A stretch of DNA of 64,000 bases from Heterostelium multicystogenum (lineage: Eukaryota > Evosea > Eumycetozoa > Acytosteliales > Acytosteliaceae), in contig RCNN01000104.1 of assembly GCA_003667245.1 (NCBI GenBank), positions 33,656-97,655 of the forward strand. Reading direction: 5' to 3'. Below the pieces are notes generated by a model. That model was not told the DNA's origin. It saw nothing but the letters and a program-made list of their open reading frames with translations, and did not search any database. A program made the translations under genes and the position numbers. Shown in pieces: positions 845-8,460 of this stretch; within the stretch, counting starts at the first letter, position 1; the number at the start of each line of letters is the position of its first letter.

Positions 845-3018
<2,174 letters not shown>

Positions 3019-3630: not shown

Positions 3631-5674
3631 ATGATCTATTATTCAAACAGAAATATTCTTTTATTAGGGTTGATCGCTATATCTTTTATTTTTAGCACTA
3701 CTCATGCTCAACCTCTGTTGAAAGCATTTCCTGGTATGTATGGTGTGAGACAATAAGTCACTTTAGCGTGGTAGGAGCTAACCTATCTTTCTATTCGTTC
3801 ATTGTGCAATGCAGAGGTCTTGCAGCAATCAGGTGACTTTCGTAGAGATAACATGGCAGGGTATTGAAAATCCAACGAAATGGATGCTTTGGCTATTTAT
3901 TTCCCAGTAGATTCAAATTTGACTGCTCCAGTCGGATATGTTTTGCTCTCAAATTCTTCAAGTAAGTACCGCTCAAATATATATATTATGTAGCCGGAAA
4001 AACAAAGCAAGCACTAACCTTTGGGTAAATAAAGCTTGGAAAGAAGGATATGGATCATTGTCTTTGAAGTTGGTCAATGTTCGTGAAAACTATTTATTCA
4101 GAAATTTGGTGCCTGGAAGTACTCCACCAACCATCGTTTACGATAAGGTAATGGTTGTCGAATGTTGCTACTTCGAATGAAAGTAACTTTTGAGAACCTC
4201 AATATGCCAGGAAAGCAATATCTTTCAATTGACTAACAGCACAGACGAAATGAGACTCATGTGGATCTCAGGTACCAATGACACCCCAATCGTCGTCACA
4301 GTAGGAACATCTCCATCTTCGCTCAACAAACAAATTCACTGGTACTTCAGTCACTTACACAATCAATCAGATGTGCGAAAAGCCAGCAATCGATCCACTC
4401 TATTTCCGTAATCCTGGATACATCCACGATGTTGTTATCACTGGATTGGACCACGCTACTGAATACTTTATACCTTTGGTAGTAATAACGATGGCTTTGT
4501 AGGACCATTCAGCTTCATAAGTGCACCAGCACCAGCATCTGAGGCATATATTGTAGCATTTGGTGATCTCGGTGTCATGCCTTCATTCTATCCAGCAAAC
4601 AGTGATGCCCAAACACCAGCACCCCAAACTGTTGCCAACGTCTATCAAACTGTCATGGCACCATTCTCTCACTCGCCACTCGCAAAGAAGCTTGGAAAAA
4701 CATCTAGCAACGGACTCAACCCAATCCCCAACATGGACTGTCCTCCACATTGGTGACATTTCATATGCCAGAGGATATGCTTTCCTTTGGGACTACTTCC
4801 AAGATGCTATGGCCGAAGTCCTCGGTCGTGCTCCATACATGGTTTCTATTGGAAAGTAAGTAAACTATCTTAATCTAAAGAATAGACCAAAGTTATTAAT
4901 CATTATGTATCAGTCATGAATGGGATTATAAGAATCAATCATTCAACCCAAGTTGGAGTGACTATGGTACTGATAGTGGTGGTGAATGTGGTGTCCCATA
5001 CATGACTAGATATCACATGACAGGAGCAGAGAATACACCACAAAGAAACCTTTGGTATTCATTTGAAAATGGTCCAATCCATTTTACCATAATGTCTGCT
5101 GAACATGACTTTTTAGTTGGATCAGAACAATACAAGTGGCTCGAGCAAGATTTAGCTTCAGTTGATAGAACCAGAACTCCTTGGGTTGTATTCAGTGGTC
5201 ATCGTCCAATGTATGATTCTGCATTGCCAGGAGGTGAGATTGGTCTTAAAACTAATCTTCGTGCCAATATCGAACCACTTTTACTGACATATGATGTCAA
5301 TCTTTGCCTATGGGGTCACGTGTAAGTAATATCTTAGAGTATCCTATATAAACATTACCCTAACATACTCTACCACTAGTCATGTTTATGAAAGAATGTG
5401 TGGATTAATTAATGGAACATGTGCTCAGTCCGATAATGAAGCACCAGTACACGTTTTAATTGGTATGGCTGGAAATACCTACCAAGTTCCATGGACAGCC
5501 AACGACTTGTCTGGTGGTAACGGTCACGAAATTCAACCAGACTATTCAATTTTCAGAGCAATCAACTATGGTTACACCAGATTCTATGCCAACACAACAT
5601 CATTATATTTCGAATATGTTGGTAACAATAGAAATCTTGTTCATGACAGCTTCTGGCTACAAAGCAAATACTAA
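3631..5674 (+). CDS. Secreted purple acid phosphatase
   Basis: Metallophosphoesterase of the plant-type purple acid phosphatase family, which hydrolyses phosphate esters in acidic or extracellular compartments with a two-metal centre. The ATG at 3631 starts a signal peptide (IYYSNRNILLLGLIAISFIF, then STTHAQ). An N-terminal Fn3-like region carries WKEGYGSLSLKLVNVREN. All five metal-ligand blocks are present in order: AFGDLG, HIGDISYARG, NHEWDYK, VFSGHRPMYDS, and GHVHVYER across the last intron. Introns are visible at about 4855-4913 (GTAAGT...TCAG) and 5322-5380, with further ones near 3733, 3962 and 4150. Frame changes occur around 3880, 4350-4560 and 4735. The stop is at 5672-5674, 83 bp from the converging CAP-papain gene. 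The substrate cannot be inferred. Confidence 0.88.
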
Positions 5675-5757: not shown

Positions 5758-7065
5758 TTAGAATGTTGGATAATATGAATTGTAACCTAACATGAAACAG
5801 TTATCATTAGCAGCGGTCAAGTACATATTTCCACCTACTCCCACCAAGTACCCCAGGAATTACGCAATATATAGTAGTCTTGGTCTGCATCGTATCCAAC
5901 CAATGCTACAATATGGTTTGTAGTATTTGTACTGTTGTTTACAATTAAAAATACCAGTGGAATATCTTTGGAAATCATCGTCTACCCAGAGTGCTACTGC
6001 AATTGGACCATTTTTAAGCTCTGCAAGCAGTGCTTCTTTGTTTTGAGCAGGGTATATCCATGATTGGCCCAGTAGAATCTTGATTTGCCTGGTGGTGATG
6101 TATAACTACATTCTCCACCGGTGGCCTTATATGGCTCATCTTCTTCATAAGCTATTCCGGTATTTAGGAACTCACTGAATACCTTTGAAGACCAACCTCC
6201 ATTACAACCATATGGGAGACCTATACACAATTATAATTAATATTGGTAATTTTAAAATAACAAAATAACATTATAACTTACAATTAACAGCATTTTGCTC
6301 AGCAAGATCAAGTGTATTGATTACAGAATTTCCATTCTTAATCATATATCTAGATTCAAGGGCGGCAACAGTTCCAAACGACCAACAAGAACCACAATTA
6401 CCTTGGTTTTTAATAGGTGTCACGTATCCGTTTCTCCAATCAATACTGTTGGGATTGGTAGTTGGAGGGGGTGGAGTTGGCGCAGGAGTTGGAGGTACTC
6501 CTGGTGTGTAAGGTGCAACACCATCAAATCCTGCTAGACTTTGGTATGCACATGACATATATGTGTAGGAACCACATTCAGCCTTTCCACATCCAAAACG
6601 TGTTACATTGGACCAAACCATAAATGTCCATGCCTAATGATATTAATATTAATATAAATTATTTAGAAATATATTAATTATTTCTTAACATACTTTACAA
6701 GTTGTATCAGTTTTACAAGTTTTTGTGTCCCAGTCGTAGTTGTCACCTAGCCTTCTAATATATTCCATTTGGACCTGAGGAGTAAAATAACTTGGTGGTG
6801 ACCACCAATATTGCCATTCAGAAGCAACTCCTTGGTATGCCAATGGGCTCCAGTTTCCTCTACAGGTGCTTAGTTCGGTTTGGATAACATTGGCAATATC
6901 ATAATCGTAAGTTAACAAGCTCAAAGGAGGATTGGCAGATGGTGTTGGATTACTTCTTATAGCATTATGGTAAGTAATTAAATATTGAACATCATCAGCT
7001 GAGAGTTGTCCATAAACATATGAAACAATAGATATTATACAAATTAAAACTATTTGTATTTTCAT
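5758..7065 (-). CDS. CAP/SCP domain fused to papain-family cysteine protease
   Basis: Secreted fusion protein. A signal peptide (MKIQIVLICIISIVSYVYG) is followed by a CAP/SCP domain (YHNAIRSNP, then MVWSNVTRFGCG), a Pro/Thr linker (PPTPAPTPPPPTT), and a C1A papain domain. The catalytic Cys is in NQGNCGSCWSFG, the His in TNHIVALVGYD and the Asn in NSWGTWWG. Introns are at 6634-6693 and 6221-6281, both with clean GT-AG borders. No ERFNIN/I29 prodomain precedes the protease: the linker runs straight into the mature-type start IDWRNGYVTPIKNQG. The CAP domain keeps the first His (YHN) but lacks the usual HxTQ His. Frame changes near 5860-6000 split the C-terminal part, including just before and after NSWG. 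It is divergent from the I29-like gene at 7740, which may be functionally linked (inference). Confidence 0.87.
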
Positions 7066-7739
7066 TTTAATTTAATAAATAATATAAATAAATAAATAAT
7101 ATAAATAAATAAATAAATAATAACTTGATATCTATTAGGAAATGATGAATAAATTGATCTATTTAAGTTGAAATTTCAACCGTTGAAATCTAAGGTTTTC
7201 CATCTTGAAAAATGGGTTCATGATATTCTTTGAGAAAATTTATCATAATCGATAACTAGCTCGAAAAAAGAATGTTTTACACCAATCAATGAGTTCATTA
7301 CTACAAAAAAAACAACTGATCTCCCCAACTTTGATCAATACTTGCATCATGAAACCCAAAAATTAATTAATTAATTAATCAAAGCCGTTTTAAACAAGAA
7401 ATTTTCAAAATTATCTTAAAAAAATATCCAAATCGTTTCAAAAAAAACACCAAAAAATAGATCGGCCATCTTGATGATCCAATTGAATTTTTCAATATTA
7501 AACGGAACAATTTCAGATATTTACATTTTATAATAATAGAAAATCTCACCAATGGTATAGATCATTGTTCCAGTTCCAAATTTACAAACCGGTCATAATT
7601 GAACAGAATCAACCAACTACTTTGAAATATACAATTTCTAAAGTTCTATTTGGAATTAAACTATTACCTATTATTTATTACCTATTATTAATTTATTTAT
7701 AGTTATTTATTTATTTATTTATTATTAATATTATTAGAA
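7066..7739. promoter_or_regulatory. Shared upstream region of the protease and propeptide genes
   Basis: This 674-bp region lies between two divergent starts (7065 minus, 7740 plus). It contains AAAT/TTTA tandem runs directly upstream of both starts (about 7071-7125 and 7665-7738) and a mid region of A/T tracts. I cannot point to a specific operator. Sharing of promoter elements is inferred from the arrangement only. Confidence 0.4.
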
Positions 7740-8460
7740 ATGAAATATTTATTTATTAGTATTTGTGTTTGTATATTATTTTTAAATTGTACTGCAGAAT
7801 ACCAAGCTACTGAAGCAGATTTACAAAATGTGTTTAAGTCTTGGGCAGCTGCATATCAAAAAACCTATACCAGTGAAGAATTTCAAGATGCCTATCAAAA
7901 AATGGAAGGTCAATTTTCAAAGCGGTAGTTAATCATAATTCACAATTCAAAAATTTACCAGATGCTGTCGTCAATGCTGTTCCAAACTCTATTGTAGAGG
8001 GTGAAGTAAGTAGTGCTCAGGCTGCTCAACCAACTATAACTTATCCCAAGGCCCAGTCTCAACTTCGTAAGTTCAACATATTGGAAAAAACAAAATATTA
8101 GCTCTAACATAATAATTCTTCAATTCAGAGTCCATGAATTATTTTGGAGATCTATCATATTCTGAGTTTGTCCAAACTTTTACTGGTGCTACTCCACCTG
8201 CAATTGGAGCTGCTAGTTTGGCGGCCTCCACTATTGCTGCTATAGTTGCCGGAGGTACATTGGTTGTTGCAGGTGCAGCAACTACCACAGTTGTTATTAT
8301 CAAAAAGAGAAGAGCAAACAAAAATAGAGAAATTGAACTCCAAGGTCAAGAAATTTCATCACCAACACCAATTCCAGAGGGTGCTACCAATGTATTCAAC
8401 ATGGAACCACCACATCACTCAATTACTGCAAGATTGTTTGGAGTAAAGAATAATAAATAA
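7740..8460 (+). CDS. Membrane-anchored I29 (cathepsin propeptide-like) protein without protease domain
   Basis: A signal peptide (MKYLFISICVCILFLNCTA) precedes a region like the I29 inhibitor domain of papain-family proenzymes: FKSWAAAYQKTYTSEEF, a VVNHNSQ segment, and after a 62-bp intron (8067-8128) MNYFGDLSYSEFVQTFTG, which matches the conserved end of I29 domains. Where a protease should follow there is instead a transmembrane segment (about 8205-8300, Ala/Gly/Val/Ile-rich), the stop-transfer sequence KKRR, and a cytoplasmic tail of about 45 residues. Predicted topology is type I with the propeptide outside or in the lumen. One single-base frame change lies near 7922. The intact part after the intron argues that the gene lives. 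A role as trans-acting inhibitor or chaperone of a cysteine protease is inference. Confidence 0.75.

What the first reader, a model, noticed from the sequence alone, without database searches (positions are those of the whole stretch)
5758..8460. Papain-type protease without prodomain, divergent from a membrane-anchored prodomain without protease
The gene at 5758-7065 fuses a CAP/SCP domain to a complete papain triad but has no I29 prodomain. Its divergent neighbour (7740-8460) is an I29-type prodomain that leads into a membrane helix instead of a protease. Papain-family enzymes normally need I29 in cis for folding and latency. The split and shared promoter region suggest a two-component protease/trans-inhibitor or membrane-docking pair. 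The domains are seen in sequence; the functional link is inference.
Basis: partly seen in the sequence, partly recalled or inferred. Interest (0 to 1): 0.85.

Follow-up and report, generated by a model that had tools for sequence, protein, structure and literature searches.

The report
Split protease: membrane-anchored prodomain partner gene
In this social amoeba, papain-type proteases that lack their usual built-in folding-and-safety segment sit back to back with genes for that segment tethered to a membrane, and the pairing recurs at six places in the genome and at least once in a related species, which suggests a two-part enzyme whose safety catch is a separate membrane protein.

Summary
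At 5758-7065 (-) lies a signal peptide-CAP-linker-papain gene without I29; 674 bp away, head to head, at 7740-8460 (+), a signal peptide-I29-transmembrane-tail gene. Both are frame-broken (three breaks and one) in an assembly that seems error-prone. The window's own I29 scores below Pfam's cut-off (15.1 v 24.4 bits); all four paralogues scanned pass. The genome holds six such head-to-head pairs: 6 of 6 I29-TM genes found adjoin a CAP-papain; 6 of 7 CAP-papains found have one. Paralogues are mostly 26-40% identical, so the linkage is old. In Heterostelium album the orthologous pair has consecutive locus tags (PPL_05869/PPL_05870). Named I29-TM relatives are all dictyostelids. All 16 proteins compared keep N-x-F-(S/G)-(D/S) and a tail motif of type HxSITAR; catalytic residues are intact wherever readable. 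Best reading: a split zymogen, the prodomain supplied in trans as membrane-tethered chaperone, inhibitor or escort. Binding, co-expression and location are inferred. No adjacency was seen among the other relatives' genes found. The CAP-papain fusion is in print; my searches found no description of the partner.

The parts
5758..7065 (-). CAP-papain gene: signal peptide, CAP/SCP domain, Pro/Thr-rich linker, cathepsin L-type papain domain, no I29; exons about 7065-6694, 6633-6282, 6220-5758 (by eye); three frame breaks near 6045, 5940 and 5840
6382..6396 (-). active-site Cys motif CGSCW
5904..5918 (-). active-site His motif NHIVA
5850..5864 (-). active-site Asn motif RNSWG
7066..7739 (.). 674-bp AT-rich (GC 0.22) head-to-head intergenic region, the only candidate for shared promoters
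7740..8460 (+). I29-TM gene: signal peptide, I29 prodomain-like region interrupted by an insert of about 30-40 residues, single hydrophobic helix, tail; exons 7740-8066 and 8129-8460 (by eye); one frame break near 7910
8137..8156 (+). GNFD-type motif (N-Y-F-G-D) of I29
8227..8301 (+). predicted transmembrane helix followed by KKRR
   Evidence: hydropathy; coordinates counted by hand from the frame
8413..8432 (+). conserved tail motif HHSITAR (first 20 bases)

Best explanation
The two genes encode a split zymogen. The CAP-papain is secreted without its own prodomain. The divergent gene supplies the I29 prodomain in trans as a type I membrane protein. Most likely the I29 lumenal domain binds the papain domain early in the secretory pathway, helps it fold, blocks its cleft, and carries it as a membrane-tethered inactive complex to a place chosen by the HxSITAR tail (endolysosome, phagosome or cell surface), where acid or proteolysis frees it. 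Shown by sequence: domain content, signal peptide and single hydrophobic helix, head-to-head pairing at six loci, consecutive tags of an orthologous pair in H. album, intact catalytic residues, the N-x-F-(S/G)-(D/S) motif and the tail motif. Inferred: membrane topology, physical binding, chaperoning, inhibition, escort, release.
For: Six head-to-head pairs with the same layout in one genome. Own-genome searches with four I29-TM queries, taken together, match both halves of the protein at the six paired loci and nowhere else except in I29-papain genes; the other weak matches fall on the hydrophobic helix or vanish under a family profile. Matches that reach into the CAP region, and papain plus CAP, give the same six loci plus C89. 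So 6 of 6 I29-TM genes found are paired, and 6 of 7 CAP-papains found; the tool calls such counts lower bounds. None of the ten CAP-papains P0010-P0019 carries PF08246, while all nine I29-TM proteins and PPL_05869 do. Gln and Cys are conserved in 16 of 16, His and Asn in 14 of 16, the rest unreadable or in a truncated model. Tail motif and NxF[SG][DS] in 16 of 16, ERFNIN spacing by a relaxed pattern in 13 of 16. The I29-TM profile's best PDB match (6u7d) aligns in two blocks on either side of the insert; 14 of 16 matches are papain-family proteins or propeptides. Best folds for the protease model are CPB and cathepsins K and L. Papain-type propeptides are described as inhibitors, proposed intramolecular chaperones and address signals (PMC5454996, passages).
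Against: No direct evidence of binding. Only about 16-18 residues separate the end of the I29 region from the membrane helix, which may be too short to fill the cleft as in cis zymogens (counted by eye on P0002). I29-TM genes diverge more than their proteases: 26-34% identity among paralogues against 32-40%, apart from C122/C26 at 60% and 56%. The two distance matrices correlate at r 0.81, but 41 of 720 label permutations reach it and one joint duplication seems to drive it. No shared promoter words beyond chance. In D. cf. discoideum the one I29-TM and the one CAP-papain found lie on contigs of different length; two and two in A. subglobosum, and four further H. album genes, have no consecutive tags; T. 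lacteum gave only an I29-TM, and D. purpureum, C. fasciculata and D. firmibasis only a CAP-papain (searches limited by words and candidates). The C89 CAP-papain has a different neighbour.
Confidence: 0.5

Rival explanations
1. Ligand-receptor or self-protection pair: the CAP-papain is released and the I29-TM sits on the plasma membrane as its cognate receptor or shield, with the conserved tail sending a signal or driving uptake; pairs diversify as private couples.
For: The tail motif is among the best conserved parts of the family; several diverged paralogous pairs exist; the helix sequence (LSTGAI..I.VG) recurs in other proteins of this genome, one of them with an EGF-like cysteine pattern by eye (C400), as surface proteins might share; a CAP-papain of the C477 group carries a UniRef label 'Gamete and mating-type specific', and gmsA is described as gamete- and mating-type-specific in D. 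discoideum (PMC4910948, passages).
Against: The gmsA link is a database label only. [quoted passage not shown] No location data.
Confidence: 0.2
2. Legacy adjacency: an ancestral I29-CAP-papain region was split or two neighbours were duplicated together, and the two products no longer interact.
For: The intron in the I29 gene has, as spliced by eye, the same place and phase in all six, and C122/C26 are each other's closest relatives within this genome in both families, so duplication as a block is likely; no shared promoter words.
Against: Linkage persists at all six loci although the proteins are mostly only 26-40% identical, and I29 motifs, tail and catalytic residues stayed intact.
Confidence: 0.15
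3. The CAP domain or linker replaces the prodomain in cis, and the I29-TM inhibits other cathepsin L-type proteases (own or foreign) on membranes.
For: Free I29 proteins such as CTLA-2 inhibit cathepsin L-like proteases (PMC4089206, abstract and passages). CAP is N-terminal, where a prodomain would be.
Against: Does not explain 6 of 6 adjacency to CAP-papains rather than to the genome's other papains. A low-confidence linker separates CAP and papain in the model.
Confidence: 0.15

Closest known systems
Cathepsin L-type zymogens (C1A with cis I29 prodomain)
   Same: I29 with GNFD-type motif and ERFNIN spacing; papain domain with intact catalytic residues
   Different: Prodomain and protease are separate divergent genes; the prodomain has an insert of about 30-40 residues, a membrane helix and a tail; the protease has a CAP domain instead
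Propeptide-like inhibitors, MEROPS I29 (CTLA-2, BCPI, crammer, salarin)
   Same: I29 as an independent gene product homologous to a protease proregion (PMC4089206, passages)
   Different: As recalled, those are soluble and not genetically paired with one target; these have a membrane helix and lie beside their presumed target (one search finds 'membrane' 0 times in that paper)
CAP:C1A modular proteases of slime moulds
   Same: Same domain order, reported for D. purpureum, P. pallidum and Planoprotostelium in PMC10084794 (passages)
   Different: That paper has 'I29' 0 times in its text and mentions no partner gene in the passages shown
Lipase-specific foldase Lif of Pseudomonas (recalled, no call)
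   Same: Adjacent gene supplies a membrane-anchored steric chaperone for a secreted hydrolase
   Different: Unrelated folds; Lif is not derived from a prodomain of the enzyme's own family

Membership tests
I29 propeptide inhibitor domain (PF08246) | Profile match over the curated cut-off | tested here: met
   C122 36.7, C477 47.0, C376 29.2, C240 27.3, P0003 33.2, P0005 42.2 bits (cut-off 24.4). The window's own protein has 15.1 bits, below the cut-off; it is placed by homology. C26 was not scanned.
I29 propeptide inhibitor domain (PF08246) | GNFD-type motif and ERFNIN spacing | tested here: met
   N-x-F-[SG]-[DS] in 16 of 16; ERFNIN spacing with relaxed residues in 13 of 16 (C26 and C104 have frame breaks there; in P0001, with a longer N-terminus, the motif lay outside the searched stretch).
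I29 propeptide inhibitor domain (PF08246) | Fold: helices 1-2, strand, helix 3 | tested here: inconclusive
   plausible order of elements but mean pLDDT 47.6; the three best hits are two procathepsins and a papain entry, but at E 2.9-8.3.
Soluble propeptide-like inhibitors (CTLA-2/crammer type) | Soluble I29 without membrane anchor (recalled) | tested here: not met
   Mean hydropathy of the best 19-mer after the I29 region is 1.86-2.51 in 16 of 16, followed by basic residues in the alignments.
C1A papain, cathepsin L-type | Catalytic Gln, Cys, His, Asn and papain fold | tested here: met
   PF00112.
C1A papain, cathepsin L-type | cis I29 prodomain | tested here: not met
   No PF08246 in P0010-P0019 or in P0012, P0014, P0016.
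CAP superfamily (PF00188) | Profile match | tested here: met
   Window 36.9 bits; P0012 30.7, P0014 30.6, P0016 34.3 bits. C240, C477 and C26 were not's list; placed by alignment.
CAP superfamily (PF00188) | CAP cavity His/Glu tetrad | not tested
   Not computed.
Trans-acting prodomain/protease pair | Cognate binding or inhibition | not testable with these tools
   No tool for complexes was available.

The most novel reading that the evidence does not exclude
Dictyostelids carry a family of private protease/receptor couples: each secreted CAP-papain has its own membrane-anchored former prodomain, which both licenses folding and, through a conserved HxSITAR tail, reports or internalises the bound protease, possibly in mating or recognition between cells.
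Probability: 0.12. Interest if true: 0.9.

Novelty: new variant of a known kind. Interest (0 to 1): 0.72.

Why it matters
Papain-type proteases normally carry their folding aid and safety catch in the same chain. A recurring split into a protease gene and a membrane-anchored prodomain gene would show how a zymogen can be turned into a two-component, spatially controlled system. It gives a genetically tractable test (knock out one partner in a dictyostelid, look at the other) of whether a prodomain can work as receptor or escort. Members of both families were found under D. discoideum names.

Tried and rejected
Pseudogene pair: not excluded for this copy (four frame breaks, long branch of 1.66 for its I29-TM), but by eye frame breaks also hit a DEAH-helicase-like gene (about 1732-2099) and a phosphatase-like gene (about 4463-4859) in the same stretch, and relatives have gene models.

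Shared promoter motif: 7 seven-mers with at least two G/C in at least 5 of 6 regions against 2.73 expected (maximum 9 in 100 shuffles), no 8- or 9-mers: nothing beyond chance.

Unpaired I29-TM genes: weak genome matches at C131, C400, C236, C330, C63, C356 and C187 were checked with a ten-sequence family profile. Six match only about positions 126-185, the hydrophobic helix. C400 aligns over 84-183 (40.1 bits), but the agreement is in the helix, the I29 motif is missing, and the rest is another kind of protein. C174 gave no match at E 1. C164 has a CAP gene and no I29-TM beside it; no match. C40, C41 and C72 are I29-papain genes.

Tail motif elsewhere: 7 genome matches, 4 in the family, backwards control 1. 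C39 lies in a short stretch in another frame than the surrounding coding sequence, by eye, C143 in a frame unlike the family, C275 reads ITAS. The C376 and C477 tails differ from the pattern.

C89 as a seventh pair: its CAP-papain has a changed active site (DCSCSF) and its divergent neighbour is another signal peptide-lumenal-TM protein. hhalign with A1: E 9.3e-5 over 21 columns, probability 58.9; family profile 14.7 bits, E 0.0044. Left open.

Structure route: I29-TM model weak (pLDDT 47.6); CAP-papain model 65.1. Literature searches. One search gave one paper, on EPDR1; none, so a comparison with tgrB1/tgrC1 would rest on recall and was not used.

Full report
What is there. The window lies at G000:C104:33656-97655 of a 29.7 Mb, 528-contig genome. 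Its nearest named relative in the protein searches is Heterostelium album: 72% identity between the C122 I29-TM and PPL_04816 and 73% between the C376 CAP-papain and PPL_10051. On the minus strand at 5758-7065 is a gene for signal peptide, CAP domain, Pro/Thr-rich linker and papain domain; on the plus strand at 7740-8460 is a gene for signal peptide, I29-like region, one hydrophobic helix and a tail. The genes are divergent, with 674 bp between start codons.

Quality of the two genes. The CAP-papain is split by two introns and three frame breaks, the I29 gene by one intron and one frame break. By eye, breaks are also seen in a DEAH-helicase-like and a phosphatase-like gene in the first 6 kb and in several paralogues, so I read most of them as assembly error; decay of this copy is not excluded. 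The window's I29 alone would not pass Pfam (15.1 bits against 24.4).

Recurrence. Profiles built from three pairs were run against ORFs of the fetched loci. The same head-to-head layout was found at C104, C122, C477, C376, C240 and C26, with 542-1599 bp between start codons. The intron in the I29 gene sits, as spliced by eye, at the same place and phase in all six. Four I29-TM proteins were used to search the whole genome (P0002, P0130, P0005, P0003). Taken together they match both halves of the protein at each of these six loci. The remaining matches were I29-papain genes (C40, C41, C72) and weak stretches at C131, C400, C164, C174, C236, C330, C63, C356 and C187. I fetched those nine and scanned them with a ten-sequence family profile: seven match, six on the hydrophobic helix alone and C400 mainly there; C164 and C174 do not match. 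Matches reaching into the CAP region, with Pfam scans, gave the six plus C89. So 6 of 6 I29-TM genes found are paired and 6 of 7 CAP-papains found. Identity among paralogues is 26-34% (I29-TM) and 32-40% (CAP-papain), except C122/C26 at 60% and 56%, so the linkage has lasted long.

Other species. Two protein searches for I29-TM (each scored only the about 8,000 candidates sharing most words) returned ten confident relatives: eight named dictyostelid proteins and one EukProt entry without a species name, and PPL_05869. One further hit at E 0.04 is an I29-papain. The CAP-papain search (356 proteins passed, 120 listed) has ten relatives at the top (P0010-P0019, 539 to 341 bits); the next two (280 and 266 bits) are double papains with I29. 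The orientation in H. album was not seen. Against this, the other H. album genes found (I29-TM PPL_02963, PPL_04816, PPL_10698; CAP-papain PPL_10051), the two and two of A. subglobosum, and the one and one of D. cf. discoideum (contigs of 555,884 and 2,113,708 bases) show no adjacency. The two D. discoideum entries have different tag prefixes and cannot be compared. T. lacteum gave only an I29-TM; D. purpureum, C. fasciculata and D. firmibasis only a CAP-papain. Partners may have been missed, or may be absent.

Anatomy of the partner. All 16 I29-TM proteins compared keep N-x-F-[SG]-[DS], a hydrophobic helix and a tail motif of type HxSITAR within 23 residues of the C-terminus (C376 has R in the first place, C477 reads SISGR, PPL_05869 SITGR). 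Thirteen of 16 keep ERFNIN spacing by a relaxed pattern. Between the two I29 blocks is an insert of about 30-40 residues with an invariant P, mostly as YP or FP. The best PDB match aligns the two blocks on either side of it; two of the 16 PDB matches are amyloid precursor chains matched over the helix. An exact pattern of the tail motif is rare in the genome.

Anatomy of the protease. Gln and Cys are present in 16 of 16, His and Asn in 14 of 16; the exceptions are frame breaks in C477 and C26, and the truncated model PPL_05870. The predicted fold of the D. purpureum relative matches CPB and cathepsins K and L. No I29 is annotated in the ten relatives.

Mechanism. Propeptides of this class block the active site and have been proposed as intramolecular chaperones and address labels (PMC5454996, passages). 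The simplest reading is that these roles were moved to a membrane protein encoded next door. The tail suggests sorting or signalling. Binding itself is not shown. The short stretch between I29 and membrane would hold the protease close to the membrane and may leave the cleft only partly filled; this is inference.

Comparison. Free I29 inhibitors are known (PMC4089206, abstract and passages) and CAP:C1A proteases of slime moulds are in print (PMC10084794, passages). I found no description of a membrane-anchored I29 partner in the listings; most papers of subscription journals are not in that library. [quoted passage not shown] orthology to gmsA itself was not tested.

Verdict. Observation confirmed; interpretation partly supported and made stronger by recurrence and one orthologous adjacent pair; function unproven.

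Noticed in passing
window about 1732-3007 (-) and 4463-4859 (+): A DEAH-helicase-like gene and a phosphatase-like gene (names by eye from the translations) also change frame inside their coding stretches, pointing to an error-prone assembly.
   Followed up: partly
L011 (C89:6500-13500), CAP-papain + from 2952; neighbour - about 499-1420: A CAP-papain with an altered active-site motif (DCSCSF) is divergent from a signal peptide-lumenal-TM protein that weakly resembles the I29-TM family: possibly a seventh, very diverged pair.
   Followed up: partly
L012 (C376) I29-TM gene, about 4205-4260: This paralogue has, by eye, an extra intron inside the ERFNIN helix that is not seen in the other five.
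   Followed up: no
P0016 (DFA_07405), P0018, P0019 and C477: One member of this CAP-papain subgroup (P0016) carries a 'Gamete and mating-type specific' label in UniRef, a possible link to sexual development.
   Followed up: partly
L022, L023, L028, L029, L030, L031, L032: The helix sequence of the I29-TM family (LSTGAI..I.VG type) recurs in other, apparently unrelated proteins of the genome, perhaps a shared membrane-anchor type of dictyostelid surface proteins.
   Followed up: partly
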